Below, in pieces: positions 12,570 through 61,246 of a stretch of 64,000 bases of DNA. The stretch covers positions 773,501 to 837,500 of the forward strand of contig NZ_CP023317.1 in NCBI RefSeq assembly GCF_009497655.1, in the 5' to 3' direction. Below the pieces are notes generated by a model. It saw only the letters and a list, made by a program, of their open reading frames with translations. It was not told the DNA's origin and searched no databases. Source of the DNA: Priestia megaterium. Its GTDB lineage: Bacteria; Bacillota; Bacilli; Bacillales; Bacillaceae_H. The translations under genes and the position numbers were made by a program. The first letter of the stretch is position 1. Every line of letters begins with the position of its first letter.

Positions 12570-12908
12570 AAAAAAGAGGCTAGGACAAAAATAGTTGAGC
12601 CCAAGTAAGAAACGAACCATTCATCAATCTGTTTGATGAGTGGTTCGTTTTTTTGCGATGATGCATATCGTTTTATTTGTTTCGTTCCTTCTAGCAGTTG
12701 ATTGGAGGGCAAGGCGAAGACTCCTGCGGGAAAAGCGGAACAGGTGAGACCCCGCAGGAGCGTAAGCGACGAGGAGGCTCAGCGCCCGCCCGCGGAAAGC
12801 GAAGCCTTGCACGGAAATCAATTGCGGTGTCATAAGCAGTCCAGCTCATGTATCTCATTTGTTCGTCTTTCAATTGGATTTATTTCGTTATGTCTCAACC
12901 TCTTTTTT
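12570..12908 (+). repeat. Dispersed structured intergenic repeat, copy 1 (full length)
   Basis: First of six related elements. It begins AAAAAAGAGGCTAGGACA and ends TATGTCTCAACCTCTTTTTT, so the ends are near-perfect inverted repeats. Near the head is a terminator-like hairpin (ACGAACCA...TGGTTCGT then T-run, about 12632-12654). The GC-rich middle has nested pairs: GTTGATT/AATCAA, and CTCCTGCGGG/CCCGCAGGAG. It starts three bases after the lipoprotein stop codon. Frames inside it are not genes. Confidence 0.85.
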
Positions 12909-13026
12909 GTTTTCTGTAAATAAATCAACGAGTTTTTTGTAAAGCTAAATTTATTGAAATATGCTAGTATAGGTTCATTCATTCTTTTATTCTTATTATG
13001 ATAGGCATCAATGGAGGTTCTTACTA

Positions 13027-13536
13027 ATGAAAGCAAATTATTGTAAAGATACAAAGGCCGTTCGAACGAGCCGCATTTTCCCTAATGATATTAATAATCA
13101 CAATACGTTATTTGGCGGAAAATTAATGAGTGATATTGATATGATTGCGTCCATTTCAGCTTATCGTCACAGTCGTACAGAGTGTGTGACGGCTTCAGCA
13201 GACTCTATTCACTTTCTGCACCCTATTACGCCTCAGGATTCTGTATGTTTGGAGTCATACGTATCATGGACAGGTCGTTCATCAATGGAAGTGTTTGTGA
13301 AAGTGATTAAAGAAAATTTAAAAACCGGGGAGCGTCAAATTGCAGCTACATCATTTTTAACTTTTGTGGCAATGGATGATGATGGAAAGCCCCGCGCAGT
13401 ACCGGAGCTTATTCCAGAAACAGAAGAAGAAAAATACCTGTTTCAAACGGGGGCAGATCGTGCTGCCACACGTAAACAAGTGCGTAAAAAAAGCAATGAA
13501 CTAGCCTCAGTGTTGGATTTAGGACAACCTTGGTAG
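13027..13536 (+). CDS. ykhA: Acyl-CoA thioesterase, hotdog fold, YkhA-like
   Basis: This is a cytoplasmic acyl-CoA hydrolase of 169 residues. It shows the hotdog-fold signature of the BFIT/YciA group: NDINNHNTLFGGKLMSDIDMIASISAYRHS near residues 20-50, followed by DSIHFLHPITPQDSV and SWTGRSSMEVFVKV. The acyl chain preference is not readable. ATG 13027 follows GGAGG at about ten bases. The gene lies between repeat copies 1 and 2 and is monocistronic. B. subtilis YkhA is the nearest homologue I recall. Confidence 0.8.
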   Translation: MKANYCKDTKAVRTSRIFPNDINNHNTLFGGKLMSDIDMIASISAYRHSRTECVTASADSIHFLHPITPQDSVCLESYVSWTGRSSMEVFVKVIKENLKTGERQIAATSFLTFVAMDDDGKPRAVPELIPETEEEKYLFQTGADRAATRKQVRKKSNELASVLDLGQPW

Positions 13537-13538
13537 CA

Positions 13539-13788
13539 TAAAAGAGAGGCTGAAAAGTATTTTAGCTCAAGTGAAAAACGAACCACTGATCAACACGTTT
13601 GATTAGTGGTTCGTTTTTTTTTTGTTATGGTGAACGTAGGTTTCAGCTGTTTCGTTCTTTCTAGCAGTCGATTGGAAGGAGAGGTGAAGTATTCCAATCA
13701 ACTGCGGTGTCACAAGCGGTTCAGCTTATGTATCCCATTTGTTCGTCTTAGGGTTGGATTCATTTCGTTATGCTTCATCCTCTTTTTT
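13539..13788 (+). repeat. Dispersed repeat, copy 2 (lacks GC-rich core)
   Basis: It begins AAAAGAGAGGCTGAAAAG and ends TTATGCTTCATCCTCTTTTTT. The head hairpin ACGAACCACT...AGTGGTTCGT with a long T-run is intact (about 13578-13612). The GC-rich CTCCTGCGGG core has been lost cleanly, joining GATTGGAAGG to CAATCAACTGCGG. It starts two or three bases after the thioesterase stop. Confidence 0.8.
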
Positions 13789-13931
13789 ATATTTGATGAA
13801 TCTTTCCTCCTAATCGAGAGGAGGAAACAAAATTATATGAAATTTATTTTCGTTCATGGTAATATGAATTTAATATAATTTTCTAAAAAGTTTAAAAAGT
13901 ACAACATTTATAAAGGAAGGTGTCGTGTCTA

Positions 13932-16700
13932 ATGGTAACAGTAGAAGCAGCAGAAAGACAAAACAGCAGCACTGCCCTGCGCCGTGATGTAAAATTTCTC
14001 GGTCAATTGTTAGGGAAAGTTCTGGTTCATCAAGGTGGAGAAGAACTGCTCAACAAAGTAGAAAAAATACGCGAAGTGGCAAAATCACTTAGAGAAAACA
14101 AAGATGAAGCCATCTATAAAGAAATAAAAAATGAAATCGTTACTCTTGAACAGCCGATGCGCGCGCAGGTTATTCGGGCGTTTGCCGTTTATTTTCATTT
14201 AGTTAATATTGCAGAGCAAAATCATCGAATTCGTCGCAGACGGGAATATCAGCAGCAAGAAGATTCTATTATGCAGCCGGGTTCATTGGAAAGCGCCGTT
14301 GTTTCGCTTAAAAATAATGGCGTGGCGCCAGATGTAATTGCTAACTTGCTTCAAACTTTATCACTTGAGCTTATCATCACGGCACATCCAACAGAAGCCA
14401 CTAGACGAAGTGTCCTTGATATTCATAAACGAATGGCTGAGCTTCTGAAAAACTTGGATAATTCAACGTTAACAAAACGTGAACGTACAGAAATTGAAGA
14501 AAGACTGTTTAGCGAAGTGTTAATTTTATGGCAAACAAATGAACTGCGAGATCGCAAGCCAACCGTAATGGATGAAGTATCCAATGGATTATATTATTTT
14601 GATGAAACGTTATTTGAAGTGCTTCCTCAACTTCATCAGGAATTGGAAAATTCATTGCAGGAGAATTACCCCGAAGAAAATTGGAAAGTGCCTAATATTC
14701 TTCGATTTGGTTCATGGATTGGCGGAGACCGAGATGGAAATCCAAACGTAACTCCTAAAGTAACGTGGCAAACGCTTGTCAAACAAAGGAAGTTAGCTAT
14801 TCGTAAATATAAAGAGTCGCTTACTCAATTGAGACAAAGGTTAAGTCAGTCTACAAAAAGAGTCGCAGTTTCAGATAATCTTCTTGATTCTATTAATCAA
14901 GAAATATCGCTGCTGCCTGAGAAAAAGCGATGGAGAATCAAACACGAAGTATATCGCTGCAAGCTTACGATTATGCTTCATAAATTAAATTTAGTTGGAG
15001 AGTTGGAAGCAGGTTATCAAAGGTCGGAAGAACTTTTACAAGATTTGTTTCTCATCAAAGATAGCTTGCAAAAGCATCAGCCTCAAGATTATCAGCTGAA
15101 AAGCTTGTGTAAATTAATTCGCCAAGTTGAGCTGTTTGGATTTCATTTAGCAACGCTTGATATCCGTAATCACAGCGGAGAACACGAAGCGGCAATCAAA
15201 GAAATTTTCCATGCTGTTTCTTTAGCTGAAGATTATTCAGCGTTAACAGAAGAGAAAAAAGTTGAGCTGCTAGGGAAAGTTCTTCAAGACCCAAGACCTG
15301 TGCTATCATTTGTAGAGAATTACTCTAAAGAAACGCAGCAAGTAATTGAAGTATTTAACATGATACATCGAGCACATAAAGAATTTGGAGAAAGATCCAT
15401 TGAAGTCTACTTAATCAGTATGACGCAGTCTGCAAGTGATTTGTTAGAAGTCATGGTACTTGCCAAAGAAGCGGGTATTTACCGCCTTCATGCAGATGGC
15501 CGCATTGAAAGCAAGTTAAATATAGCTCCGCTGCTTGAAACGATCGATGATCTCACAGCAGGTCCTAAGATTATGGAACAGCTATTTCAATTAGATTTTT
15601 ATCGAGAGCACTTAAGAAAACAGAAGGATTTGCAGGAAATCATGCTTGGCTACTCAGATGGAAGCAAAGATGGAGGAACGCTTACCGCTAATTGGAAGCT
15701 CTACAAAGCGCAGCAGGAAATTCACGATATGGCGAGGAAGTATCAAGTTCGTCTGAAGTTTTTCCATGGCCGAGGCGGCTCACTAGGCCGAGGAGGAGGC
15801 CCGTTAAACCGAAGCATTTTATCTCAGCCTGTTGAGACGCTAGGAGACGGTGTTAAAATTACAGAGCAAGGAGAAGTTCTTTCTTCTAGATACTCTTTAT
15901 ATGACATTGCTTACCGAAGCCTTGAACAAGCGGTCTCAGCTCTTCTTACAGCGGCAGCAAATGTTTCTCAAGAAGCTGAACAATGTGATATTCGTACACA
16001 TGAATGGGAAGAAACAATGGACGAGATTTCAACTGCTTCGTTACGTAAGTATCAAGAGCTTGTTTTCAACGATCCAGACTTTTTAACCTACTTTAAACAA
16101 GCTACACCTCTTCCTGAGCTCGGGGCTTTAAATATTGGGTCACGTCCAATGAGTCGAAAAGGAAGTGATCGCTTTGAAGACTTGCGAGCAATTCCATGGG
16201 TATTTGCATGGACGCAAAGCAGACAGCTGCTTCCAGCCTGGTACGCTGCAGGTACGGGCTTACAGCATTTAGTAGAGAAATCCGGAGATATACAGCTTCT
16301 TCAGCAAATGTATAAAGAATGGCCATTTTTCCGCTCGACCGTCGATAACCTGCAAATGGCTTTAACAAAAGCAGATTTAATGGCAGCAAAAGAATACACA
16401 GAAATGGTACAAGATCCGGTTATTTCAGAGAGGATTTTTACCGCTATTAAAAAAGAGTATAATGTTACGAAAGAAATGATTCTTCAAATCACGGGGCAAA
16501 AAGAATTAATGGATCATCTTCCTACGATTAAAGAATCTATTAAATTACGAAATCCGTATGTGGACCCTCTAACCTTCTTGCAAGTTAAGGTTATTTCCAA
16601 GCTGCGTGAAGATGAGGCTGAAACGTTAAATGAAGAACTTTTAAAAGAAGCATTATTAACGATTAACGGCATTGCAGCAGGATTGCGTAACACAGGCTGA
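13932..16700 (+). CDS. ppc: Phosphoenolpyruvate carboxylase
   Basis: PEP carboxylase adds bicarbonate to phosphoenolpyruvate to give oxaloacetate, an anaplerotic step in the cytoplasm. The key motifs are present: catalytic His in ITAHPTEATRRSV (about residue 150), WIGGDRDGNPNVTP (about 260), LGYSDGSKDGGTLTANW (about 575), the mobile loop FHGRGGSLGRGGGP (about 620) and the C-terminal RNPYVDPLTFLQVK. I start at ATG 13932, about 11 bases after AGGAAGG; GTG 13920 would overlap that site. The protein is then 922 residues, normal for bacterial PEPC. The gene stands alone with a terminator after it. Just upstream, about 13804-13827, is a hairpin with arms TTTCCTCC and GGAGGAAA but no T-run. Confidence 0.95.
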   Translation: MVTVEAAERQNSSTALRRDVKFLGQLLGKVLVHQGGEELLNKVEKIREVAKSLRENKDEAIYKEIKNEIVTLEQPMRAQVIRAFAVYFHLVNIAEQNHRIRRRREYQQQEDSIMQPGSLESAVVSLKNNGVAPDVIANLLQTLSLELIITAHPTEATRRSVLDIHKRMAELLKNLDNSTLTKRERTEIEERLFSEVLILWQTNELRDRKPTVMDEVSNGLYYFDETLFEVLPQLHQELENSLQENYPEENWKVPNILRFGSWIGGDRDGNPNVTPKVTWQTLVKQRKLAIRKYKESLTQLRQRLSQSTKRVAVSDNLLDSINQEISLLPEKKRWRIKHEVYRCKLTIMLHKLNLVGELEAGYQRSEELLQDLFLIKDSLQKHQPQDYQLKSLCKLIRQVELFGFHLATLDIRNHSGEHEAAIKEIFHAVSLAEDYSALTEEKKVELLGKVLQDPRPVLSFVENYSKETQQVIEVFNMIHRAHKEFGERSIEVYLISMTQSASDLLEVMVLAKEAGIYRLHADGRIESKLNIAPLLETIDDLTAGPKIMEQLFQLDFYREHLRKQKDLQEIMLGYSDGSKDGGTLTANWKLYKAQQEIHDMARKYQVRLKFFHGRGGSLGRGGGPLNRSILSQPVETLGDGVKITEQGEVLSSRYSLYDIAYRSLEQAVSALLTAAANVSQEAEQCDIRTHEWEETMDEISTASLRKYQELVFNDPDFLTYFKQATPLPELGALNIGSRPMSRKGSDRFEDLRAIPWVFAWTQSRQLLPAWYAAGTGLQHLVEKSGDIQLLQQMYKEWPFFRSTVDNLQMALTKADLMAAKEYTEMVQDPVISERIFTAIKKEYNVTKEMILQITGQKELMDHLPTIKESIKLRNPYVDPLTFLQVKVISKLREDEAETLNEELLKEALLTINGIAAGLRNTG

Positions 16701-16706
16701 TGATAC

Positions 16707-16745
16707 CAAAAGACACCTCAATAAAACAAAAGAGGTGTCTTTTGT
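16707..16745 (+). terminator. Terminator after ppc
   Basis: CAAAAGACACCTC (16707-16719) pairs with GAGGTGTCTTTTG (16732-16744); the 3' arm ends in a T-rich run. Confidence 0.8.
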
Positions 16746-16917
16746 TCATTCTTCTCACATAAAGAACTGCCTGTCAGTTCCTTCTCTTTTAAAGAGAACT
16801 TCCGTCTGTTAAATAGGCACTGAGAAAAATCAGTGATAAAATAGAGAAGAACTGGTAATATTCTACAAACAAGTGCTAGTGGTGGGGTAACTAGATTGAA
16901 TATGGAGGACGAGGACA

Positions 16918-17361
16918 ATGGTAAAAAATTCGCAAATCTTCATTGAAGCTGACTCCGAGAATTCTGTATTTATTGGACTGGAATTTTGTGAGTATACACA
17001 AAAAATGAATCCTACTTGTTTGTCCAAACAGCATATAAATGTGTTTATTCATCCGGAAGAACTCACTGTGGAATTTAAGAAAACAAAAAGTGATAGAACT
17101 ATTGATGATTTCCATCTGATGCATATCGTTCCGGTTCATTGCTTTAATTATTTATTATGTTCGATTTCGCAAGGTATTGTTACAGATGTTCAGCTAAAAG
17201 CGGTCGGTCATCAAGGAGAAACGTTGTTTGAAGAAAATCTTACATTGAAGTTTCATGAAAAAGCGACGGATTATGAAGAAACGCTCTCATTTTTCAAACA
17301 TTTAAATCAAGAAATACAAAAACAGACGAAAAAATATACAGCCAGTTATATGAGCTCATGA
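16918..17361 (+). CDS. Unknown protein, 147 residues
   Basis: I do not recognise this protein. It is 147 residues, soluble, without signal peptide or membrane segment, and looks like a mixed beta fold (alternating hydrophobic strands such as INVFIHPEELTVEF and VTDVQLKAV). Four cysteines occur without a CxxC pattern. The gene starts at ATG 16918 after GAGGACGAGGAC, a moderate ribosome site, and ends in its own strong terminator, so it is monocistronic between ppc and the Rieske gene. Codon use matches the neighbours, so I take it as a real gene. Confidence 0.65.
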   Translation: MVKNSQIFIEADSENSVFIGLEFCEYTQKMNPTCLSKQHINVFIHPEELTVEFKKTKSDRTIDDFHLMHIVPVHCFNYLLCSISQGIVTDVQLKAVGHQGETLFEENLTLKFHEKATDYEETLSFFKHLNQEIQKQTKKYTASYMSS

Positions 17362-17366
17362 TAAAG

Positions 17367-17397
17367 AAAGCTGCGGTTTTAAAAACCGCAGCTTTTA
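17367..17397 (+). terminator. Terminator after the unknown gene
   Basis: AAGCTGCGGTTTT pairs with AAAACCGCAGCTT in an almost perfect palindrome (17368-17394), then TTT. It starts six bases after the stop codon. Confidence 0.9.
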
Positions 17398-17502
17398 TTC
17401 GTTTAACCGAAAAAATTATGTGAGAGATGCTTACAAAGCAAGAGATTTTTCAGTGGGAAATTGATAAAGTAAAAATAAGAGAAATCAGTGGACAGAAAAG
17501 CT

Positions 17503-17523
17503 TTTAGCGGCTGGCCGCTTTTT
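17503..17523 (+). terminator. Terminator-like hairpin in the 17.4-17.75 kb intergenic region
   Basis: AGCGG (17506-17510) pairs with CCGCT (17515-17519), tetraloop CTGG, followed by five T residues. No gene ends here on the plus strand, so it may close a short transcript. Confidence 0.45.
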
Positions 17524-17667
17524 ATTCAATATGCAAGGGTTAGGTAGTGAGATTAAAAAAATAGCGATGAATACGTATTGTTATTGTAGATGAAGTGCTA
17601 AGGTCGCTCTATCTGCAATTATGTAGAATCTTCGCGCGCTTATAGTCTGTTTTACGGAACGAAAAAG

Positions 17668-17711
17668 CTGCGGAATTAGAAGAACTCCTTCTATTTCTGC
17701 GGTTTTTTTTA
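17668..17711 (+). terminator. Strong terminator 43 bases before the Rieske gene
   Basis: CTGCGGAATTAGAAG (17668-17682) pairs with CTTCTATTTCTGCGG (17688-17702) with two G-U pairs and one mismatch, followed by eight T. No coding sequence ends just before it. It is either the end of a small RNA transcribed from about 17530 onwards or an attenuator in the leader of the next gene. I recognise no aptamer in the leader. Confidence 0.6.
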
Positions 17712-17753
17712 TAAACAAGAAATAAATTCACTTATTGTACGGAGGCGATGCAG

Positions 17754-18761
17754 ATGATTAAAGATTTAGTATTGGCTAAGGAATGGCTGCCTGCAGCTTA
17801 TTCACATGATTTAACAGATCAGCCCTTGCAAGTAACGATTTTAGAAGAGCGAGTTGCGCTGTTTCGCACAACTAATGCCATTAAAGCATTTAAAGATTTG
17901 TGCATCCATCGCGGTGCAGCGTTATCTCTTGGGAAAGTAGTAGATGATTGCATTGTGTGCCCTTATCACGGATGGAAATACGATGGTGCCGGGGCTTGTG
18001 TGAAAATTCCTCAACAGCCGCCGGGAAGAGCGATTCCTTCAAAAGCAAAAGCACAGGTATATGATTGCGTTGAAAAGTATGGAATTATATGGGTGAAGAT
18101 GAACAGCGAGGCAAGTGATATTCCTCTTCCTCAGTATGACGAATACCTTAACTCCGGATTTAAAACGGTTTGCGCCAACCCTCATACTCTGCAGGCAGCA
18201 GCTCCTCGTGTCGTAGAAAACTTTCTAGATGTAAGCCATTTGGCTTTTGTTCACGAAGGAAGCCTTGGACACTCGGATTACGCCGAAATTCCTGATTATA
18301 AGGTACATTGGAAAGATAACCGATACATTTCTGACGAAATCGCTGTGTACGCAGATGCAGATGGTACGGGTAACTTTGCGACTATTTATTATACTTTTGA
18401 AATTCTTCGTCCTGCCGTTGCAAGGTTGAAAAAAGTGAACTATGAAACGGGTGAAATCTTTTCGATGCTGTTTGCGGTTTTACCTGAAGAGGAAAGAAAG
18501 TCGACTGTGTTTGCATTGGTTTCTAGAAACTATTCGTTTGATGCACCTGATCAATATTTCCGTGATTTTCAACAGCTTATTATTGAACAAGATACGAGCA
18601 TTGTAGAAAGTCAAAAACCCGAAGAGCTGCCGCTTGACTTACAAGCAGAGCTTCATTTGAATCCGGACCGACTGAGTATTGCCTATAGAAGATGGCTCGG
18701 TGATTTAGGAGTGACCTTTGGAAGTGACGTAGGAACAAGATTAAAAAAAGCTGCTCAATAA
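17754..18761 (+). CDS. Rieske-type ring-hydroxylating oxygenase alpha subunit
   Basis: This is a Rieske non-heme iron oxygenase of the vanillate demethylase/phthalate dioxygenase type, acting in the cytoplasm on an unknown, probably aromatic substrate. The [2Fe-2S] ligands are C-x-H in DLCIHRGA (about residue 47) and C-x2-H in CPYHGWKY (about 66). The catalytic iron site is NFLDVSHLAFVHEG (about 155), with Asp bridging and two His ligands. Its 335 residues are normal for the group. I start at ATG 17754, eight bases after GGAGGCG; ATG 17748 is too close to it. No reductase or ferredoxin gene is adjacent, so electrons must come from elsewhere. It is monocistronic. Confidence 0.85.
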   Translation: MIKDLVLAKEWLPAAYSHDLTDQPLQVTILEERVALFRTTNAIKAFKDLCIHRGAALSLGKVVDDCIVCPYHGWKYDGAGACVKIPQQPPGRAIPSKAKAQVYDCVEKYGIIWVKMNSEASDIPLPQYDEYLNSGFKTVCANPHTLQAAAPRVVENFLDVSHLAFVHEGSLGHSDYAEIPDYKVHWKDNRYISDEIAVYADADGTGNFATIYYTFEILRPAVARLKKVNYETGEIFSMLFAVLPEEERKSTVFALVSRNYSFDAPDQYFRDFQQLIIEQDTSIVESQKPEELPLDLQAELHLNPDRLSIAYRRWLGDLGVTFGSDVGTRLKKAAQ

Positions 18762-18797
18762 AAAAGAAGAAAGGAGTCTCCTTTCTTCTTTTTTATG
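18761..18797. terminator. Bidirectional terminator between the Rieske gene and fetB
   Basis: A long purine/pyrimidine palindrome: AAAAAGAAGAAAGGA (18761-18775) pairs with TCCTTTCTTCTTTTT (18779-18793), with A- and T-runs outside. It serves both convergent genes and overlaps the fetB stop. Confidence 0.85.
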
Positions 18798-29762: not shown

Positions 29763-29798
29763 TTGTTCATATCAATTGAATACAGCTAAGATTACGAT

Positions 29799-29865
29799 CT
29801 TGTATATTATCAGTAATATGGTCTGATAGTCTCTACCTAGTAACCGTAAAAAACTAGACTACAAG
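29799..29865 (+). ncRNA. Purine (guanine-class) riboswitch aptamer
   Basis: P1 is CTTGTA (29799-29804) with TACAAG (29860-29865). The conserved AATATGGTCTGATAG and CTCTACC strings and the P3 hairpin CTAGTAACCGTAAAAAACTAG follow in order. After P3 the junction reads GACTAC; the C at 29859 corresponds to C74 of the xpt aptamer, which selects guanine or hypoxanthine rather than adenine. A terminator lies downstream, so purine binding should turn nupG off. Confidence 0.92.
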
Positions 29866-29924
29866 AAAGTTTGGATATAAGCAGCAAAAAGAAGGGCGTA
29901 TTATCATAGATACAGCCTTCTTTC

Positions 29925-37080: not shown

Positions 37081-37418
37081 AAAAAAGAGGCTGGGACAAA
37101 AGTATTTAAGATGAAATGAAAAACGAACCACTAATCAATTTTGATTGGTGGTTCGTTTTTTTGTTGTGGTGAACGTAGGCTTCATTTGTTTAGATCCTTC
37201 TAGCAGTTGATTGGAGGACAAGGCGAAGACTCCTGCGGGAAAAGCGGAACAGATGAGACCCCGCAGGAGCGTACGCGACGAGGAAGCTCATCGGCCGCCC
37301 GCGGAAAGCGAAGTCTTGTACGGAAATCAACTGCGGTGTCATAAGCGGTTCAGCTCATGTATCCCATTTATTCGTCTTTAGATTGGATTCATTTGGCTAT
37401 GTCTCAACTTCTTTTTTA
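37081..37418 (+). repeat. Dispersed repeat, copy 3 (full length)
   Basis: It begins AAAAAAGAGGCTGGGACA and ends TATGTCTCAACTTCTTTTTT. The head hairpin is ACGAACCACTAATCA / TGATTGGTGGTTCGT with T-run. The core CTCCTGCGGG/CCCGCAGGAG and GTTGATT/AATCAAC pairs are intact. It fills the whole gap between terC and the convergent dctP, touching the dctP stop codon. Confidence 0.85.
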
Positions 37419-53168: not shown

Positions 53169-53444
53169 AAAAAAAGAGAATGTGAGAAAAGCTGTTTCGC
53201 TAACCTTAAACACGAACGATCTATCAAAAATAGATAGTTCGTGTTTTTTTTATGGTCATGGTGAACGTAGGTTTCGTGTGCGCAGTTCCTTCTAGCTGTT
53301 GGCTGGAGGGCAAGGCGAAGACTCTCGCGGAAAGCGGAGCCTTGCACGGAAATCCACAGAGGTGTCATAAGCAGTCCAGCTCATTTATTCCCTTTTTCCA
53401 TCTTTGGATTGAATTCATTTTGTTATGTCTCAATTTCTTTTTTC
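53169..53444 (+). repeat. Dispersed repeat, copy 4 (shortened core)
   Basis: It begins AAAAAAGAGAATGTGAGAAA and ends TATGTCTCAATTTCTTTTTT. The head hairpin has changed sequence but kept pairing: CACGAACGATCTAT / ATAGATAGTTCGTG with T-run. The core is shortened to GAAGACTCTCGCGGAAAGCG, having lost the CTCCTGCGGG/CCCGCAGGAG pair. Confidence 0.75.
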
Positions 53445-53500: not shown

Positions 53501-54133
53501 ATGAAAGTGAAAGATATTAAAAATATTTATTGTGTAGGCCGAAACTACGCACTGCATGCAAAAGAATTACATAATGATATTCCAACATCACCTTTTTTAT
53601 TTTCCAAACCTACTCACGCTCTCGTTGAAGCAGCTGGACAATCAATCACTCTTCCTAGCGACCAAGGAGAGGTGCACTTTGAAACCGAACTGATTCTTCA
53701 TATTGGACAATCTTATAAAGAAGGCATAGCAGTGGATGAACTTGTTGACGAGATGACGATTGGATTAGACTTGACGCTTCGAGATGTACAGAGCAAATTA
53801 AAACAAAAAAAGCACCCTTGGCTGCTTGCAAAAGGATTTAAACATTCAGCGGTCGTGGGAAATTTTCTGCCGTTTGAAGGAGTAGAAGCATCTAAGGAGA
53901 AAGACTTTTCGTTAGTGAAAAACAATAAACGCGTGCAGCTGGGAAATATCAAAGATTTGATTTTTGATTTACAAACGATTATTGATTTTACAGGAAAACA
54001 TTTTGGTCTTGATAAAGGAGATCTTATTTTTACAGGTACACCTGAAGGAGTAGGTCCGCTTTCACATCAGGATCATCTTTCACTTAAATGGGGAGAGCAA
54101 GAGCTTGGTTCTTGCATCATTTCCTTTCGTTAA
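53501..54133 (+). CDS. Fumarylacetoacetate hydrolase family protein (YcgM-like)
   Basis: This 210 residue cytoplasmic enzyme has the FAH fold, used by acylpyruvases, oxaloacetate decarboxylases and oxaloacetate tautomerases. Visible marks are [14 protein letters not shown], the metal-binding [13 protein letters not shown] (Glu pair), [10 protein letters not shown] (Asp), [11 protein letters not shown] and [14 protein letters not shown]. The exact substrate is not readable. ATG 53501 follows AAGGG at the better distance; ATG 53498 is the alternative. It sits between two dispersed repeats. Confidence 0.82.
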
Positions 54134-54493
54134 AAAAAGAGGCTGAGAAAAAGTAGTTTGTAGTTTTAATTGAAGGAAAATCCGAACGGTGAATCGAGAT
54201 TCTTGATAGAGAATCCAACCTGTTCGGATTTTTTATTGCGATGGTGAATGTAGGATTCACGTATTTCGTTGTTTCTAGAGGTTGATTGGAGGGCGAGACG
54301 AAGACTCCTGCGGGAAAAGCGGAACAGGTGAGACCCCGCAGGAGCGGAAGCGACGAGGAGGCTCACCGGCCGCCCGCGGAAAGCGAAGTCTTGCACGGAA
54401 ATCAACACAGGTGTAACAGGCGGTTCACCTTATTTATCTCATTTGTTCGTATTTAGATTGGCTTGACTTCGTTATGTCTCCATCTCTTTTTTT
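54132..54493 (+). repeat. Dispersed repeat, copy 5 (full length)
   Basis: It overlaps the stop codon of the FAH gene (TAAAAAAAGAGGCTGAG) and ends TATGTCTCCATCTCTTTTTT. The head hairpin differs from the others: TCCGAACGGT...ACCTGTTCGGA, with an inner stem (GATTCTTGATAGAGAATC). The core CTCCTGCGGG/CCCGCAGGAG, the AAGACT/AGTCTT and the GTTGATT/AATCAAC pairs are intact. Confidence 0.85.
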
Positions 54494-54537: not shown

Positions 54538-55044
54538 ATGGGAAAGCTGTTTCTATCTCCTTTAGAAAACGAGGTCCTCAGCATGGTGCTCTTAATCTTT
54601 ACAACGGTGATTTCTATTTTGAGTGTACTAGTCATGCCAAAACGTATCAGCTGGATAGAAATGTACACAACTTCTTTGTTTGTTATGTTTTTAGGATCGG
54701 TAGCAGATATATATCTTGATGTTAAATATGATCTTTATGGATTTTTTACAAAAGGAGTAGATTTTGAATATCTTTTTATTTTTATTTTTATTTATCCTGC
54801 GACAAATAGTGTATTTTTGAATTTTTATCCACAAGGCAAGAGTCTGTTTAGAAAAGCTTTATATATTACAGTGTGGGTAATTCTTACGACATTGTTTGAG
54901 TACATTTCTACCCAAACGGAAGTGTTTTATTATAATGGATGGAAGATTCTATACTCGTTTTTTTGCTATCCGTTTCTTTATATAGCAATGGTCTTAAATT
55001 TAAAAATGATACGCAGGCTCCAGGTTATCGATAAGCAAAAATAG
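54538..55044 (+). CDS. Membrane protein, CBO0543-like
   Basis: This protein of up to 168 residues has about five hydrophobic segments and resembles small membrane proteins annotated as CBO0543 family in Bacilli and Clostridia, with the typical ADIYLDVKYDLYGFF and IFIYPATNSVFLNFYP segments. Function unknown. The ATG at 54538 has no ribosome site; ATG 54583 follows GAGGT at eight bases and would give 153 residues, so the start is uncertain. It lies between repeat copy 5 and the HELGH gene. Confidence 0.6.
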   Translation: MGKLFLSPLENEVLSMVLLIFTTVISILSVLVMPKRISWIEMYTTSLFVMFLGSVADIYLDVKYDLYGFFTKGVDFEYLFIFIFIYPATNSVFLNFYPQGKSLFRKALYITVWVILTTLFEYISTQTEVFYYNGWKILYSFFCYPFLYIAMVLNLKMIRRLQVIDKQK

Positions 55045-55272
55045 AAATAAAAAAAAGTAATGATAAATCATAAAAAAATGATATTTTATTAATGGCTACA
55101 TATGTAATATAGTAAAAATAGAAAATAAATGAAGCAGCATATAAGCAGGGTTAAAAAACATCAAAACGGGAATCTTGACATTAACTTCATGTTTTTAACC
55201 ATGTATTGTGAATGAATATACTTATTAATAAATAATATGTTGTAGAAGGAATTTAGTAAAGGAGGCAAGAAG

Positions 55273-55836
55273 ATGTTTAAGCGTAGTGAAAAAATCCAAA
55301 TTCATGGCGTAACGTTTCATGGAGTCATGAGTGCGAAGCAAAAAGCCGCCCTGCAGGAAATTGCTAATGTAACAGACGAAAAAGACTGGGATGGGCTAAA
55401 AGGTGTGTATTGCTTAGGCAGTGTAAAGGTGCAAGGAAAAGATGTGCTAGGCGTGTACTATGGCCAATTTAATGATAACCTTCCAAAAGAGAAGCGCAAA
55501 CTTCAGTTTGAAATTGACTATATTAAATATACAGTAACGGAATGCCCGATTATCTTTATCGATACAACAAAAAATAAAAAGCCTCATCAATTTGCTTTTA
55601 TCATTTTGCATGAATTAGGCCATCATGTGGATCGTATGACAAATGGAACGCTTTTAAAAGAAGGAAATAGAACGCAAGAAATGTTTGCTAATACGTATGC
55701 TTTGGAGAAATATTCAAAAATAGAAAAGTTCCAAACAAAGAAGTTGAAAAACATTCCATTTTTAGAGGAATCTCTTACTCAATGGAATAAAACTCCTCAC
55801 CCTGGAGCGTATTCTCTTAGAGTTCAAATTGAATAA
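55273..55836 (+). CDS. HELGH-motif metallopeptidase-like protein
   Basis: This 187 residue protein carries a zinc-binding HExxH motif (IILHELGHHVDRM, about residue 115) followed after about 24 residues by QEMFANTYALEKY, whose Glu could be the third zinc ligand. The layout is similar to ImmA/IrrE-type and related gluzincin-like domains, but there is no linked XRE gene or integrative element here. It has no signal peptide or membrane segment, so it is probably cytoplasmic. The N-terminal part (residues 1-100) is not recognised. AAAGGAGGC precedes the ATG. It is monocistronic. Confidence 0.65.
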   Translation: MFKRSEKIQIHGVTFHGVMSAKQKAALQEIANVTDEKDWDGLKGVYCLGSVKVQGKDVLGVYYGQFNDNLPKEKRKLQFEIDYIKYTVTECPIIFIDTTKNKKPHQFAFIILHELGHHVDRMTNGTLLKEGNRTQEMFANTYALEKYSKIEKFQTKKLKNIPFLEESLTQWNKTPHPGAYSLRVQIE

Positions 55837-56130
55837 TTCATGAGAATAGTTCCTTTCTCTCCGTTTTTTACTTTCCTGTCTTTTTCCTCTTTCTCTCTTT
55901 TATCCTTTCAATGAACAAAAAGGATTTAATTACTCATAAAGTTTTAAAAGTTTTTATAGTACGAATTATTTACACTATACCCTCCTGTAAATTATGATTA
56001 TTTTAAGAAAAAACAGAAAATTTTAAAGTTTTAAGGTACAACTTAATAGTGAACAAGCGATGTTGTAATCGTATAGACAAACTGGCATACATATGCGAGT
56101 CATACATACAAACGAATCGCTTCCACTGTT
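55837..56130 (+). promoter_or_regulatory. citM upstream region with repeated AAAGTTTTAA
   Basis: This 300-base region lies before citM. AAAGTTTTAA occurs at 55938-55947 and 56025-56034, in AT-rich surroundings where the response regulator CitT could bind. A possible promoter is TTTACA (about 55970) with TTATGA 17 bases later. All three are inferred from position. Confidence 0.3.
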
Positions 56131-56145
56131 ATGAAAGCGGATTCA
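56131..56145 (+). promoter_or_regulatory. cre site (CcpA) before citM
   Basis: ATGAAAGCGGATTCA matches WTGNAANCGNWNNCW at all 15 positions. It lies 18 bases before the citM ATG, directly upstream of the ribosome site AGGAGGGG, so CcpA would act as a roadblock. B. subtilis citM is also CcpA-repressed. Confidence 0.8.
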
Positions 56146-56163
56146 AAAATAGGAGGGGTAATA

Positions 56164-57468
56164 ATGTTAGCTATTCTTGGGTTTTTGATGGTTTGTACAT
56201 TTATGTTTCTGATTATGACAAAACGATTAACGCCGCTTATTGCTTTAATGGTTATTCCAGTATTGTTTGCAATCATAGGGGGATTCACAAGTGATATTGG
56301 AGAAATGGCTTTAAATGGTGTAAAAGAATTAGCGCCTACAGGCGTTATGTTAATGTTTGCTATTTTATATTTTGGAATTATGATTGATGCTGGTTTGTTT
56401 GATCCAGTTGTAGGAAGAATTTTGAAAATTGTAAAAGGTGATCCACTAAAGATCACAATTGGTACAGCTATTTTAGTTCTTATTATTTCATTAGACGGAG
56501 ACGGAACAACAACATATATGATCACGCTCTCAGCGATGCTTCCGCTTTATAAAAAGCTAAATATGAAGCCGATGATTTTAGCTTGTATCGCGATTATGGG
56601 TAGTGGGGTTATGAACTTAACACCTTGGGGAGGACCAACTGCTCGTGTGATGAGTGCATTGAAGTTAGATGCTTCACAGGTGTTTACACCACTGATTCCA
56701 GCCATGATTGGTGGAGCTGTTTGGTTATTATTCACGGCTTACTACTTTGGGAAAAAAGAGCGCCAGCGCCTAGGTGTTATTGATATTCAAGATGTTACAA
56801 ATGCTCAAGTAGCTTTTGCAGAAGCAGCAGCCGCTGAAGGAATCGAGTACAAGCGTCCGAAGCTTTTATGGGTAAACTTTGCTTTAACAGCTTTATTATT
56901 AGTAGGACTCATCACAGCAGTTATGCCGCTTCAAATTCTATTTATGATTGGATTTGCAATCGCTATCATGATTAACTATCCAAATCTAGAAGTTCAAAAA
57001 GAGCGTATCACAGCACATGCTGGTAATGTACTTGCTGTTGTGTCTCTTGTATTCGCAGCAGGCGTATTCACGGGTATTTTATCAGGTACCAAAATGGTAG
57101 ATGCAATGGGTAATAGCTTAGTAGGATTAATTCCAGATGCGTTAGGGCCTTACATGTCTGTGATTACTGCCATCACAAGTATGCCATTTACATTCTTTAT
57201 GTCAAATGATGCTTACTACTATGGGATTTTACCAATTATTGCTCAAGCAGCTTCAGCATACGGTATTGATGCTGCAGAAATTGGCCGTGCTTCATTGATT
57301 GGTCAACCTGTTCACTTACTAAGTCCTTTAGTTGCTTCTACGTATCTATTGGTCGGTATGGCAAAAGTCGAGCTTGGTGAATTTCAGCGCTTTACTTTAA
57401 AGTGGACGATTGGAACAGCTATGGTGATGCTTTTAGTAGCTATTATTACAGGAGTTATTACGCTGTAA
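56164..57468 (+). CDS. citM: Metal-citrate:proton symporter CitM (CitMHS family)
   Basis: This 434 residue membrane protein has about 12 hydrophobic segments and takes up citrate complexed with a divalent metal (Mg2+ or Ca2+). Family features are KELAPTGVMLMFAILYFGIMIDAGLFDP, SLDGDGTTTYMITLSAMLPLY and TPWGGPTARVMSAL, plus the C-terminal SNDAYYYGILP. The adjoining CitS-CitT pair and the TctC-like protein support the role. ATG 56164 follows AGGAGGGG; the longer frame from 56131 covers the cre site. A terminator follows. Confidence 0.92.
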   Translation: MLAILGFLMVCTFMFLIMTKRLTPLIALMVIPVLFAIIGGFTSDIGEMALNGVKELAPTGVMLMFAILYFGIMIDAGLFDPVVGRILKIVKGDPLKITIGTAILVLIISLDGDGTTTYMITLSAMLPLYKKLNMKPMILACIAIMGSGVMNLTPWGGPTARVMSALKLDASQVFTPLIPAMIGGAVWLLFTAYYFGKKERQRLGVIDIQDVTNAQVAFAEAAAAEGIEYKRPKLLWVNFALTALLLVGLITAVMPLQILFMIGFAIAIMINYPNLEVQKERITAHAGNVLAVVSLVFAAGVFTGILSGTKMVDAMGNSLVGLIPDALGPYMSVITAITSMPFTFFMSNDAYYYGILPIIAQAASAYGIDAAEIGRASLIGQPVHLLSPLVASTYLLVGMAKVELGEFQRFTLKWTIGTAMVMLLVAIITGVITL

Positions 57469-57481
57469 AGATCAGGAAACT

Positions 57482-57524
57482 AAAAACTTATCAATTCCGC
57501 TTTTGGGATTGATAAGTTTTTTTG
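57482..57524 (+). terminator. Terminator after citM
   Basis: AAACTTATCAATTCC (57484-57498) pairs with GGGATTGATAAGTTT (57505-57519), followed by T residues. Confidence 0.85.
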
Positions 57525-57621
57525 TCTAAAAAGCTTTTGGAATAAGGAGCGGATATACAAAAAATTTTGATAAAATAAAAGAAGAATAGAACTATAAGGT
57601 AAAGGCTAAAGGTGCGATGAA

Positions 57622-59211
57622 ATGAAAAAATGGTTTCAAGTATCGCTGCAAACAAAAATCGTAGGTTTATCCGCAGCATTAATCATAACTGTTATTGTTC
57701 TTTTAGCGAGTATTTTCTCTTACATGCAGTTTGTAGAATCTAAAAGGCAAGCCGAGCAGCTGGCTCTTCAAGCAGCCAAATCAATATCATTTATGCCGGA
57801 AGTCAAAACTGCTTTTCAAAAAAAACAGCCGAGTCGATATATTCAGCCGCTTGCCGAGCAAGTGAGGGAACAAATCGGAGCAGCAAGTATTGTGGTTCAA
57901 AACCGTGAGCAAATCATCTATTCTCATTCTAATCAAAAATGGATAGGAAAGAAAAACAAAGAGGCGGTTAACGATAGAGCACTATTATTCGGCGGATATT
58001 ATACGCTGGACGGAGAGGGAACCACAGGTCCTGCTATTATGGGGAAAGCGCCTATTGTCATCAGTCACGGAAAGTATACGGAAGTCGTGGGAGTGGTGAC
58101 GGTTGAGTTTTTAAAATCTCATGTTCATGCTCAGCTCATTACGCGTATTCAGCAAATTATCCTATTTTCACTAGCTGTTTTATTGCTTGGTATGATCGGG
58201 GGTATTTTTTTAGCTAAAAGTATTAAAAAAGATACTCTTGGTCTTGAACCCCATGAAATCGCTTCTTTGTACCGTGAACGAAATGCGATTTTACTTTCGA
58301 TAAAAGAAGGAATTATTGCTATTGATCATCAAGGCTTTATTACGATGATGAATACATCAGCTAAAAATATGCTGGGGTTACAGACGGAATATTTACATCA
58401 TCATATCATTGAAGTATTTCCTTATACGAATATGATTAAAGTGCTAGATACGGGAATAGCCCGAAGCGACCAAGAAATTTTTTTGAATGAAAAAACGTTT
58501 ATCTTAAACTTAACACCCATTATTGAACATCAGCGAATTGTAGGAGTGGTCGCTAGTTTTCGTGATAAGACAGAATTAAAAAGCTTAATCAATACGATTT
58601 CAGAAGTACGAAAGTATTCAGAGGATTTACGAGCTCAAACGCATGAGTTTACGAATAAGCTGTATGTTTTGTCGGGTTTGCTGCAGTTAGGGCAGTACAA
58701 AGATGCATTGGAGTTTATTCAAAAAGAATCAGCCGTACACCAAACGCAAAATCGTATTCTATTTGATCAGATATTAGATTCCAAAGTTCAAGCAATATTG
58801 CTTGGGAAGATTGGAAAAGCATCTGAAAAGAAAATTCATTTTTCGGTTGATTCGGAGAGTACACTCGATACGCTCCCAGAACATATTGAAATTTCTCATC
58901 TCATTATCATTATTGGGAACTTAATTGATAATGCATTTGAAGCCGTGAGTCAGCGTTCTAAAAAAGAAGTGTCGTTTTTTATTACCGATATTGGTCATGA
59001 TTTAATTATTGAAGTGATGGATAACGGACCCGGTATATCAGAAGAAGTACTAAATCAAATTTTCACAAAAGGGTTTTCAACCAAAGGTACAGACAGAGGG
59101 TACGGACTGGCAAATATAAAGAAAATGGTAGATGAACTTGGAGGATCTATTGAAGTGTATAATCAGCCAGAAGGAGGAGCCATTTTTTCAGTTTACCTTC
59201 CAAAAAACTGA
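57622..59211 (+). CDS. citS: Sensor histidine kinase CitS (CitA family)
   Basis: This 529 residue membrane kinase senses citrate. Membrane segments are at about 12-33 and 172-195, flanking an extracytoplasmic PAS-like domain (about 34-170). Then come LEPHEIASLYRERN, a cytoplasmic PAS (about 220-320), the H-box THEFTNKLYVLSGLLQLGQ and a HATPase domain (GNLIDNAFEAV, DNGPGIS, RGYGLANIKKM). It is paralogous to DctS. Gene order citM-citS-citT means it sits behind the transporter it controls. AAGGTG precedes the ATG. Confidence 0.88.
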   Translation: MKKWFQVSLQTKIVGLSAALIITVIVLLASIFSYMQFVESKRQAEQLALQAAKSISFMPEVKTAFQKKQPSRYIQPLAEQVREQIGAASIVVQNREQIIYSHSNQKWIGKKNKEAVNDRALLFGGYYTLDGEGTTGPAIMGKAPIVISHGKYTEVVGVVTVEFLKSHVHAQLITRIQQIILFSLAVLLLGMIGGIFLAKSIKKDTLGLEPHEIASLYRERNAILLSIKEGIIAIDHQGFITMMNTSAKNMLGLQTEYLHHHIIEVFPYTNMIKVLDTGIARSDQEIFLNEKTFILNLTPIIEHQRIVGVVASFRDKTELKSLINTISEVRKYSEDLRAQTHEFTNKLYVLSGLLQLGQYKDALEFIQKESAVHQTQNRILFDQILDSKVQAILLGKIGKASEKKIHFSVDSESTLDTLPEHIEISHLIIIIGNLIDNAFEAVSQRSKKEVSFFITDIGHDLIIEVMDNGPGISEEVLNQIFTKGFSTKGTDRGYGLANIKKMVDELGGSIEVYNQPEGGAIFSVYLPKN

Positions 59212-59238
59212 ATCATGAGAAGTAAGGGGAGAGTCGAA

Positions 59239-59910
59239 ATGTTACGAGTCGCAATTGCAGAAGACGATTTTCGAATTGCTCAAGTTCAAGAGCGATTTTT
59301 ATTAGAAGTAGATGGTGTAGAAGTCGTAGGCAAAGCGTTGAATGCAAAAGAGACGCTTGAAATGCTAAAGGAGAAGAAAGTTGATTTACTTCTTTTAGAC
59401 ATCTATATGCCAGATGAAATGGGAACAGATTTACTCCCAAAAATCAGAGCCCAGTTTCCACAAGTTGACGTTATCGTGGTAACGGCTGCAACAGAAAAAA
59501 ACATTGTAGAAATCTGTTTGAGAAACGGCGTCGTTAATTATTTGATTAAGCCGGTTATGATGGAATCCTTCATTAATGCTATTAAACAGTATCAAGAGAA
59601 AAAGGAACTGTTTAGTACGCATGAAGAAGTTGATCAATCATTTATTGATGCGTACTTTGGACATGTCAGAACAAAGCCAAAAGCGGATAAATCTCTTCCT
59701 TCAGGTATTGATGGTATCACATTACAAAAGTCAAAAGACATTTTGAAAAGCATCAAAGGAATTACGATCGAAGAGATGGGCCAACACATGGGAGTATCTA
59801 GAACGACAGCTAGACGATATTTAGAGTATCTAGTATCAGCCGGTGAATGTCACGTTGAATATGATTATGGGATTATTGGAAGACCGGAGCGCAAGTACTA
59901 TTTAGCGTAG
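59239..59910 (+). CDS. citT: Response regulator CitT (CitB family)
   Basis: This 223 residue regulator should activate citM. The receiver has IAEDDFRI at the N-terminus, phosphoacceptor Asp in LLLLDIYMPDEMG (about residue 54) and Lys in YLIKPVMM. The C-terminal helix-turn-helix is TIEEMGQHMGVSRTTARRYLEYL. I use ATG 59239 after AAGGGGAGA; ATG 59215 lacks a site. It overlaps no gene and follows citS by 27 bases. Confidence 0.88.
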   Translation: MLRVAIAEDDFRIAQVQERFLLEVDGVEVVGKALNAKETLEMLKEKKVDLLLLDIYMPDEMGTDLLPKIRAQFPQVDVIVVTAATEKNIVEICLRNGVVNYLIKPVMMESFINAIKQYQEKKELFSTHEEVDQSFIDAYFGHVRTKPKADKSLPSGIDGITLQKSKDILKSIKGITIEEMGQHMGVSRTTARRYLEYLVSAGECHVEYDYGIIGRPERKYYLA

Positions 59911-59934
59911 CATTAGCCTTGAAGGATGGTATAT

Positions 59935-60903
59935 ATGATCAAAAAGCTCATGATAGTGTTTATAAGTGCATTGCTTGTTAGCTGTTCTACTCCCTCTAAA
60001 AAAGACCGCATTAGTATGGAAAAAATTGAAATTGTGGCAGCCGGTGCAAAAGGCGGAGGAGCAGATGCAACAGTAAGAGCCATTCAACAAGTGCTAACGG
60101 AAAAGAAGATTGTGAAGGTACCCGTTTCTGTTAGTAATAAAATAGGTGGGCAAGGTGAAGAAGGATGGAAATATATTAAACAGAGAAAAGAAGGAAATAT
60201 TGTTTCCGGGAATTCCAGTTTGCTGATTACAAATAATTTGCTAGGGCAAAGTCAATTAACCTATAAAGACTTTACTCCGCTCGCTATTTTAACATCTGAA
60301 TGGGAGGTCATCGTAGTTCCTGTTAACTCTCCTATATACAATTTAAAACAGCTCATACGCACGTTAAATCAAAGTGAATCCAGTATGAAAGTGGGAATAT
60401 CACCTCGATTAGGAAACGACGATCATTTATCGTTCATGCAGCTAAATAAAAAAGCAGGCGTAGACTCTTCCAAGCTTGAGTTCTTCGTTTATAACAGCAG
60501 TCATAAAGTAATTGATGCGCTCGTTCATCATCAGCTAGATGTAGCACCCATGTCATTATCAGAAGTAAAAAAGCAGTATGAACAAGGGCAGGTAAGGATA
60601 CTCGCCGTTTCTTCTCCTAAAAGGCTAGAAGAGCTAAAAGAGATACCGACGTGGAAAGAAGCGGGAATTGACGTAACGTTTAGCCATTGGAGAGGTCTAA
60701 TGGGACCGCCTAATATGACCAAAGAACAGGTAGCATATTGGAATAAGGCCGTGTATGAAATGGTTCATACAAAAGAATGGGAACAGCTTCTTAAAGATAA
60801 TGATTTAACCTCTTTTTATAAAAATAGCAGCGGTGCTAAAGTCTTTCTTGAGCAGCAAAGCAAGCTGTATTCTGACTTAATGGGCGGAGCAAATGATGAA
60901 TAA
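59935..60903 (+). CDS. yflP: TctC-family tricarboxylate-binding lipoprotein (YflP-like)
   Basis: This 322 residue extracytoplasmic binding protein has a signal peptide with lipobox LVSC (Cys about 18), so it is a lipoprotein. It is of the Bug/TctC family: IEIVAAGAKGGGADATVRA, IGGQGEEGWKYIKQRKEGN and WRGLMGPPNMTKEQ are typical. No TctA/TctB membrane subunits are present, so it may serve as a citrate-sensing auxiliary for CitS, much as DctB serves DctS; that is inference. B. subtilis yflP lies beside citM. I use ATG 59935, after GAAGGATGG; ATG 59926 overlaps the site. Confidence 0.85.
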   Translation: MIKKLMIVFISALLVSCSTPSKKDRISMEKIEIVAAGAKGGGADATVRAIQQVLTEKKIVKVPVSVSNKIGGQGEEGWKYIKQRKEGNIVSGNSSLLITNNLLGQSQLTYKDFTPLAILTSEWEVIVVPVNSPIYNLKQLIRTLNQSESSMKVGISPRLGNDDHLSFMQLNKKAGVDSSKLEFFVYNSSHKVIDALVHHQLDVAPMSLSEVKKQYEQGQVRILAVSSPKRLEELKEIPTWKEAGIDVTFSHWRGLMGPPNMTKEQVAYWNKAVYEMVHTKEWEQLLKDNDLTSFYKNSSGAKVFLEQQSKLYSDLMGGANDE

Positions 60904-60911
60904 ATACAATA

Positions 60912-61246
60912 GAAAAAGGTTGGGACAAAAGGATTTTAGATGGAGTGAAAAACGAACCATTGATTAAAGTTTTTAATTCTTGGTTCGTTTTTTTGTTGTG
61001 GTAAGTGTAGTTTCATCTGTTTCGTTCCTTCTAGCAGTTGATTGGAGAGCAAGACGAAGACTCCTGCGGGAAAAGCGGAACAGGCGAGACCCCACAGGAG
61101 CGTGAGCGACGAGGAGGCTCACCGGCCGCCCGCGGAAAGCGAAGTCTTGCACGGAAATCAACTGCGGTGTCTTAAGCAGTTCCGCTCATATATCCCATTT
61201 GTTCGTCTTTAGAATTAGATTCATTTCGGTATGTCTCAACCTTTTT
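60912..61246 (+). repeat. Dispersed repeat, copy 6 (full length)
   Basis: It begins AGAAAAAGGTTGGGACAAAA and ends TATGTCTCAACCTTTTTCT; the end pairs match each other (AGAAAAAGGTTG / CAACCTTTTTCT) better than they match other copies. The head hairpin is ACGAACCA...TGGTTCGT with T-run. The core has one change (CCCACAGGAG). It lies between convergent tctC-type and lysR genes, four bases from the lysR stop. Confidence 0.85.

What the first reader, a model, noticed from the sequence alone, without database searches (positions are those of the whole stretch)
12570..61246. Six-copy family of structured intergenic repeats, all in one orientation and each just after a plus-strand gene
Copies lie at 12570-12908, 13539-13788, 37081-37418, 53169-53444, 54132-54493 and 60912-61246. 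Each begins 0-9 bases after the stop codon of a plus-strand gene. The ends are inverted repeats of each other (AAAAGAGGCTGAGACA against TGTCTCAACCTCTTTT), and the inside is nested pairs (GTTGATT/AATCAAC, AAGACT/AGTCTT, CTCCTGCGGG/CCCGCAGGAG). Two copies lost the GC core by internal deletion but kept the head and tail. This could be a non-autonomous mobile element that targets terminators, or a long structured 3' RNA. Similar GC-core strings are known to me from other Bacillaceae genomes, but I know no assigned function.
Basis: partly seen in the sequence, partly recalled or inferred. Interest (0 to 1): 0.7.

Follow-up and report, generated by a model that had tools for sequence, protein, structure and literature searches.

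The report
Mini-transposons that replace gene terminators
The six repeats look like short, transposase-less relatives of a known bacterial transposon family (IS1182) that stand where sister species have the ordinary stop-transcription hairpin of a gene, and that bring a stop hairpin of their own.

Summary
Observation confirmed: six related elements (250-362 nt), each 0-9 nt after a plus-strand stop codon. The own genome holds at least 40 copies, on both strands.

Key result: at all six window sites, and at 16 (19 with three read by eye) of 29 element sites in four syntenic 400-kb stretches, a sister species has an ordinary terminator hairpin, different from site to site. The element takes that hairpin's place; where junctions are clear the A-tract and T-tract stay and nothing is duplicated. 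Among 127 plain terminators outside the elements I found one hairpin exchanged for an unrelated one, against eight exchanges with the element (G000 versus G008).

The ends match ~1.8-kb IS1182-family insertion sequences. A decayed IS1182 element in the same genus has the same tail and the GC core on both sides of its transposase gene. IS1272, of that family, is published to target hairpins, delete part of the stem-loop and make no duplication (PMC4923244). So these are hairpin-replacing IS1182-type MITEs, without an IS1182 match in the own genome today. A co-varying intrinsic terminator in their head probably restores termination. The mobile reading is supported, a separate 3'-RNA function unproven. 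The GC core occurs in 145 of 199 Bacillales genomes and looks like IS1182 baggage.

The parts
12570..12908 (+). copy 1, full length; gained in this lineage, of a recent subfamily
   Evidence: G008, G001 and G003 all have the plain hairpin AAAAAAGAGAAGAATTTTTCTTCTCTTTTTT here; 94-96% identical to three other own-genome copies
13539..13788 (+). copy 2, core lost by internal deletion
   Evidence: fuller copies (312-313 nt by profile) at the same site in G008 and G001, plain hairpin in G003
37081..37418 (+). copy 3, full length
   Evidence: orthologous copy in G001 (97% over 335 aligned nt), plain hairpin in G008 and G003
37118..37162 (+). intrinsic-terminator hairpin in the head of copy 3
   Evidence: stem with T-run; across 33 copies 7 of 13 stem pairs have both sides changed; the consensus scan tool did not report it
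37198..37337 (+). GC-rich core of copy 3
   Evidence: query stretch 118-257 is what matches many other Bacillales; core found in 145 of 199 order genomes
53169..53444 (+). copy 4, most of the core lost
   Evidence: 335-nt copy at the same site in G008, 222-nt in G001, plain hairpin in G003
54132..54493 (+). copy 5, full length, with a longer variant of the head hairpin
   Evidence: element in G008 (220 nt) and G001 (317 nt), plain hairpin in G003; here the bases after the T-tract differ too in G003
60912..61246 (+). copy 6, full length, between convergent genes
   Evidence: same site: + in G001, opposite orientation in G008, plain hairpin GAAAAAGCTCTC..GAGAGCTTTTTC in G003

Best explanation
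The repeats are miniature, non-autonomous insertion sequences (MITEs) of the IS1182 family. SHOWN BY SEQUENCE: their ends match those of autonomous IS1182-type elements; they sit where sister species have an ordinary intrinsic terminator; that hairpin's stem and loop are missing beside them and no target duplication is seen; at six sites the hairpin is shared by two or more other genomes, so there the element is the newcomer; copies then lose the core by internal deletion. At the remaining sites the direction of change is taken from these. INFERRED: an IS1182-type transposase supplied in trans recognised the ends, cut a terminator hairpin near the base of its stem and joined the MITE there, losing the stem-loop (the mode published for IS1272/TnSha1). 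Because the MITE carries an intrinsic terminator just inside its head, the upstream gene keeps a terminator, which would make the insertion nearly neutral and would explain the high copy number and the head-first orientation between tandem genes. No transposase source was found in the own genome, so the family is probably orphaned there.
For: Replacement: 29 element sites in four syntenic 400-kb stretches; 16 have a plain hairpin in at least one other species by script, three more by eye; the six window sites are among the 16. Six sites have the hairpin in two or more genomes; three of these have the element in one genome only. Control: 127 plain terminators (131 less four with element signatures); orthologues at least 80% identical in 113 (G008), 113 (G001), 68 (G003); one exchange for an unrelated hairpin (199291 in G008 and G001); if any terminator could be donor, P for 8 of 9 G000/G008 exchanges involving the element is 1.8e-6. 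Family: pairs of AAAGAGGCTGGGACAAAA 1.81-1.84 kb apart in G250, G264, G201 enclose 534-608 aa ORFs; four transposases tested (L198, L202, L203, L208) hit NF033551 (IS1182) at 413-443 bits, cut-off 270. In G006, same genus, a decayed IS1182 transposase lies between two inverted core+tail stretches (E 2e-33 and 1e-20). Core inside 6 of 20 fetched IS1182 loci, 0.94 expected (P 1e-4), 0 of 8 loci of other mobile genes. Published mode: IS1272/TnSha1 (PMC4923244; abstract and passages).
Against: No IS1182 match in G000, G001, G003, G007; only a sub-threshold fragment in G008, so the mobiliser is not identified. The G006 element has stop codons and its left end differs from the MITE head. In 10 of the 29 sites no plain-hairpin comparison was available (short derivatives, unmapped flanks; at 139229 no hairpin in G003). 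Some junctions are not clean: at 320185 no A-tract, at copy 5 the bases after the T-tract differ, several breakpoints ambiguous. One ordinary terminator, 199291, also changed hairpin between species, so exchange is not wholly confined to the element. The passages on IS1272 suggest no orientation bias, whereas here tandem sites are nearly all head-first (49 of 49 orthologue-counted; 12 of 13), which needs selection or an extra rule. IS1272 makes partial deletions of the hairpin. Transposition and termination were not measured.
Confidence: 0.87

Rival explanations
1. Host-encoded 3' RNA: the elements are long structured 3' UTRs or sRNAs kept for a regulatory role, and the GC core is the functional part.
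For: Strong folding on both strands; 18 of 53 predicted pairs have changes on both sides, 0 of 500 shuffles reach this; core sequence conserved over Bacillales.
Against: Presence differs site by site between species about 95-97% identical; the core is deleted in many copies; a terminator precedes the core; inverted-repeat ends and IS homology explain the pairing; no Rfam family reaches its gathering score at the repeats. The structure was derived from the same alignment.
Confidence: 0.05
2. Host recombination or replication template-switching between the A-tract/T-tract bases of hairpins copies the element into other terminators, with no transposase.
For: Exchange lies at shared A/T tracts; no IS1182 match in G000, G001, G003, G007 and no Y1 transposase in G000, G001, G003, G007, G008; one ordinary terminator (199291) also changed hairpin.
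Against: Ordinary terminators share the same tracts, and targets do not differ from them in tract content, yet only one exchange was found among 127 plain ones, against eight with the element between G000 and G008; the ends match an IS family with this published target mode.
Confidence: 0.06
3. Ordinary insertion next to the terminator, with the old hairpin lost later.
For: Short deleted derivatives show that deletions at these sites are common.
Against: In the printed element/hairpin alignments I saw no element beside the ancestral hairpin (both outputs were cut in the middle); of 48 comparisons by script 8 were flagged, all for 9-mers made of the A/T tracts or bases next to them; the three single-lineage gains also lack the hairpin.
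Confidence: 0.02
4. Retro-mobilisation: the U-tract 3' end of element RNA is primed by the A-tract of the target and reverse transcribed.
For: Polarity of the tracts and the head-first orientation after transcribed genes fit.
Against: No RVT_1 match in G003, G007 or G018, which carry many elements; the ends belong to a DNA transposon family.
Confidence: 0.01

Closest known systems
IS1272 / TnSha1 (IS1182 family, staphylococci; PMC4923244, abstract and passages seen)
   Same: targets hairpins, five of seven sequenced targets confirmed there as terminators; removes part of the stem-loop; no target duplication; repeated independent insertions into one terminator, also in both orientations
   Different: IS1272 encodes its transposase and TnSha1 carries a passenger gene; ours is about 340 nt, transposase-less, in high copy, and carries a terminator of its own
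Autonomous IS1182-type elements with AAAGAGGCTGGGACAAAA ends (G250, G264, G201)
   Same: terminal inverted repeats; in 5 of 6 loci read they start 3-11 nt after a same-strand ORF (60 nt in L199)
   Different: 1.8 kb with a 534-608 aa transposase; interior not compared in detail; the Bacillaceae copy in G006 has the GC core
ISMac2-type MITEs of Methanosarcina (IS1182 family; one table passage in PMC3852290)
   Same: MITEs attributed to the IS1182 family
   Different: 160-169 bp, 7-14 copies, archaeal; the passage says nothing on terminators
SPRITE of Streptococcus pneumoniae (PMC3049150, passages seen)
   Same: small mobile-looking repeats resembling terminators, close to gene 3' ends
   Different: 30 copies, termini only AAAA/TTTT, no similar IS end and no comparable empty site found by its authors
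bcr1-bcr18 of Bacillus cereus (PMC6542083, passages seen)
   Same: interspersed, mobile-looking repeats of 100-400 bp in Bacillaceae
   Different: mobility linked there to TTTAT motifs and a site-specific-recombination-like mechanism; the word terminator does not occur in that paper

Membership tests
IS1182-family MITE | terminal inverted repeats matching an IS of the family | tested here: met
   same 18-nt end bounds 1.8-kb IS1182 elements; one end ..ACAAAA, the other TTATGTC.., as in the IS of L201, L203, L221
IS1182-family MITE | no transposase gene; short; many copies | tested here: met
   250-362 nt in the window; at least 40 in the genome, 22 in 400 kb
IS1182-family MITE | interior or subterminal sequence shared with an autonomous partner | tested here: met
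   core and tail flank a decayed IS1182 transposase in G006 (L225); core in 6 of 20 IS1182 loci. The partner is itself decayed
IS1182-family MITE | autonomous partner in the same genome | tested here: not met
   0 IS1182 matches in G000; not essential to the definition, but it leaves the mobiliser unidentified
IS1182-family MITE | transposition in trans demonstrated | not testable with these tools
   needs an experiment
IS1272-type hairpin replacement (mode of action) | target is a stem-loop | tested here: met
   hairpin in a sister genome at 16 (19 with by-eye) of 29 sites; ten sites had no usable comparison
IS1272-type hairpin replacement (mode of action) | stem-loop deleted, no target duplication | tested here: met
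   junction alignments: mostly 9-34 nt of hairpin gone, tracts kept once on each side; several alignments ambiguous
Y1 (HUH) mobilised REP/RAYT repeat | Y1 transposase in carrier genomes | tested here: not met
   PF01797 without a match in G000, G001, G003, G007, G008
Rfam RNA family | match at or above the gathering score | tested here: not met
   only two riboswitches in the window; below-threshold matches on copy 3 look like chance

The most novel reading that the evidence does not exclude
Terminator-for-terminator transposition is a general force in Bacilli: IS1182-type MITEs with the ends AAAGAGGCTGGGACAAAA have swapped out a sizeable share of intrinsic terminators (22 elements beside 127 plain hairpins in one 400-kb stretch) and brought portable terminators with them, so many 3' ends in this class are of transposon origin; the pan-Bacillales GC-rich repeat is IS1182 baggage spread along with such elements.
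Probability: 0.6. Interest if true: 0.66.

Novelty: new variant of a known kind. Interest (0 to 1): 0.55.

Why it matters
It explains a widespread unannotated repeat and shows a route by which a parasite can spread at low cost: remove a gene's terminator and hand back another. It turns the IS1272 observation, made on seven sequenced staphylococcal targets and twelve more from databases, into a genome-scale pattern with sister-species comparisons and a terminator control, and it makes the hairpin-removing step of IS1182 transposases testable with a 340-bp substrate. Annotators and users of 3'-end maps in Bacillaceae should expect transposon-derived terminators.

Tried and rejected
Rejected: RNA-family membership; HUH/RAYT mobilisation; RT-based copying; generic hairpin exchange as the main cause (one exchange found); special A/T-tract preference of targets (no difference, 14 target hairpins in G003 against 120 ordinary). 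Undecided: whether the reversed copy at the copy-6 site in G008 was flipped in place or inserted anew. It shares 1 rare variant with G000, but has only 5, and it is 90-91% identical to the orthologues, slightly above most other copies; I lean to a new insertion.

No use: the 1566-bp Planococcus plasmid with a core-like stretch; no phage record matches. A syntenic test in genus g31 failed: no shared synteny and no profile hit in the first 200 kb of G115 and G193; in 160 kb of G042, same genus, I saw core-only repeats without A/T-tract ends. In genus g7 the relatives of G018 were too distant to compare junctions. The upstream flank of L008 gave no match in the four sister genomes. Sequence-string searches in papers were useless. 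Scripts ended in errors; 31 had printed its results first, 61 and 90 were rerun. The outputs were cut in the middle. The scan tool missed the head terminator, perhaps because its stem absorbs the T-run. The arm-retention test partly tested flank or A/T bases instead of the GC arms, so the replacement claim rests mainly on the alignments.
Full report
Check of the observation. The six copies exist where stated, start 0-9 nt after a plus-strand stop codon and share ends and inner pairs. Thirty-three copies align at 76% mean column identity. The layout is: A-tract, GAGGCTGGGACAAAAGTA, an intrinsic-terminator hairpin (CGAACCA..TGGTTCG and a T-run), about 45 nt of linker, a GC core of about 140 nt, a tail, and TTATGTCTCAACCTC with a T-tract. 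The own genome (G000; probably Priestia, judging from about 86%-identical copies on P. megaterium plasmids and a P. aryabhattai copy) shows 40 places, with 40 of 165 first-look candidates scored. On the structure predicted from the same alignment, 96.1% of cells pair and 18 of 53 pairs change on both sides (shuffled mean 6.9, 0 of 500 reach it); the head stem is the best single helix (7 of 13).

What sits there in sister species. I took 400 kb from G000 and the syntenic stretches of G008, G001 and G003 (mean flank identity 94.9-96.9%). A profile finds 22, 19, 22 and 5 elements, full or deleted, at 29 distinct sites. At 16 sites a script finds an ordinary hairpin in at least one other genome; by eye there are three more (around G000:287301, 335136 and 340451 in stretch coordinates). 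The other ten have only short derivatives of the element, unmapped flanks or, at 139229, no hairpin in G003. The hairpins differ from site to site. Where junctions are clear the element lies between the same A-tract and T-tract and the GC stem and loop are gone; exceptions are 320185, which has no A-tract, and copy 5, where the bases after the T-tract differ too. All six window sites have the hairpin in G003, copy 3 also in G008, and copy 1 in G008, G001 and G003. Six sites have the hairpin in two or more genomes, which makes it ancestral there; three of these are single-lineage gains: copy 1, G000:16869 and G008:271386. Elsewhere the direction is taken by analogy. At a site outside the stretch G003 has a hairpin, G001, G008 and G007 divergent elements, and G000 a young one. 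At copy 6, G008 has an opposite-facing copy, probably a separate insertion but not proven. So the same terminator can be hit more than once.

Control. The same G000 stretch has 131 terminator-like hairpins outside profile hits; four carry element signatures, leaving 127 plain ones. Of these 127, orthologues are at least 80% identical in 113 (G008), 113 (G001) and 68 (G003); 65-80% in 1, 2 and 3; below 65% in 4, 5 and 3; an element is there in 1, 0 and 0; unmapped 8, 7 and 53. I read the low cases: most are shifted intervals, homologous hairpins or a missing stretch (201581 in G008 and G003), but at 199291 G008 and G001 have a hairpin unrelated to that of G000 and G003. So ordinary exchange happens, but rarely: one case, against eight hairpin/element differences between G000 and G008. 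If any terminator could serve as donor, P for at least 8 of 9 involving the element is 1.8e-6.

Orientation. 65 of 68 elements (orthologues counted apart) have the head against the 3' end of a gene read in the same direction: 49 tandem and 16 convergent; the other three are one orthologous site. In a sample of 30 that shares five copies with the first: 12 tandem head-first, 1 tandem reversed, 16 convergent, 1 divergent. The strand follows the gene also where the gene is on the minus strand. The passages on IS1272 suggest no orientation bias; selection for a terminator near the stop codon is my inferred reason for the difference.

Who moves it. Y1 transposases have no match in G000, G001, G003, G007 and G008, reverse transcriptases none in G003, G007 and G018. 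The end AAAGAGGCTGGGACAAAA (one mismatch allowed) occurs in 64 of 299 Bacilli genomes; the reversed control pattern in 3. In G250, G264 and G201 the ends form pairs 1.81-1.84 kb apart around a 534-608 aa ORF; in 5 of the 6 loci the element starts 3-11 nt after a same-strand ORF, in L199 60 nt. Four such proteins (L198, L202, L203, and L208 from G430) are IS1182-family by NCBIfam (413-443 bits, cut-off 270). The MITE keeps the asymmetry of the IS ends..ACAAAA at one and TTATGTC.. at the other. In G006, same genus, a decayed IS1182 transposase lies between two inverted stretches matching core plus tail. Of 20 IS1182 loci fetched, fragments included, 6 contain a core (0.94 expected from first-look counts, P 1e-4); 8 loci of other mobile genes contain none. 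G000, G001, G003 and G007 have no IS1182 match. IS1272, an IS1182-family member, is described as targeting hairpins (five of seven sequenced targets confirmed as terminators, one target in a coding region), with blunt, partial deletion of the stem-loop and no duplication (PMC4923244; abstract and passages). That is the same kind of behaviour.

Spread. The core occurs in 145 of 199 Bacillales genomes and 73 of 97 genera, in G042 as core-only repeats. G018, of another family, has its own expansion of the whole architecture. A 24-base left end finds 21 stretches, mostly of named Bacillaceae and relatives, among them Niallia, Evansella, Oceanobacillus, Metabacillus, Shouchella and Ureibacillus; none has an IS1182 ORF within 2.5 kb by tblastn with five queries, and 11 show a right-end-like motif within 0.7 kb.

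Verdict. Mobile, terminator-replacing, IS1182-type MITEs: what they work like (IS1272) is well supported; membership of the IS1182 family by ends and by the G006 partner is good but lacks a resident transposase and any mobility test. In the paper searches made I saw no description of this family or of a MITE that replaces terminators and supplies its own; most subscription papers and ISfinder could not be searched.

Noticed in passing
L217 (G026:C1), L218 (G002:C156), L223 (G025:C6): A second IS1182 subgroup with CAGACTGTAGACA-type ends is flanked by direct copies of a whole terminator hairpin (exact 20- and 28-base repeats at 1375/2950 in L217 and 1360/2947 in L218; diverged in L223), so it seems to duplicate the hairpin rather than delete it.
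   Followed up: partly
L220 (G011:C1): An IS1182 element whose outer bases GAGGTTGAAGGA / TCCTTCAACCTC look like the kept lower half of a target stem, in line with cutting within the stem.
   Followed up: no
G000:C1 near 799292 (position 199291 of the 400-kb stretch): An ordinary terminator whose hairpin differs in sequence between G000/G003 and G008/G001 although the flanks are conserved: a possible exchange not involving the element.
   Followed up: partly
genomes of f72/g127 and f49: Several small genomes (about 2-3 Mb) hold 10-34 copies of the end motif per strand; what lies between the ends there was hardly read.
   Followed up: no
L124-L130 (G025): 282 first-look core candidates; cores embedded in larger repeats with ..TGTAGACAAA-like ends, perhaps IS1182-type MITEs of the second subgroup.
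   Followed up: partly
window 9609-9687 and 29780-29881: ZMP/ZTP riboswitch and purine riboswitch, both above their gathering scores.
   Followed up: no
NZ_CP069405.1 14766-15105 (L033): On a P. megaterium plasmid a full copy (about 86%) lies right after a CoA-disulfide reductase gene, and part of it is annotated as a hypothetical protein.
   Followed up: no
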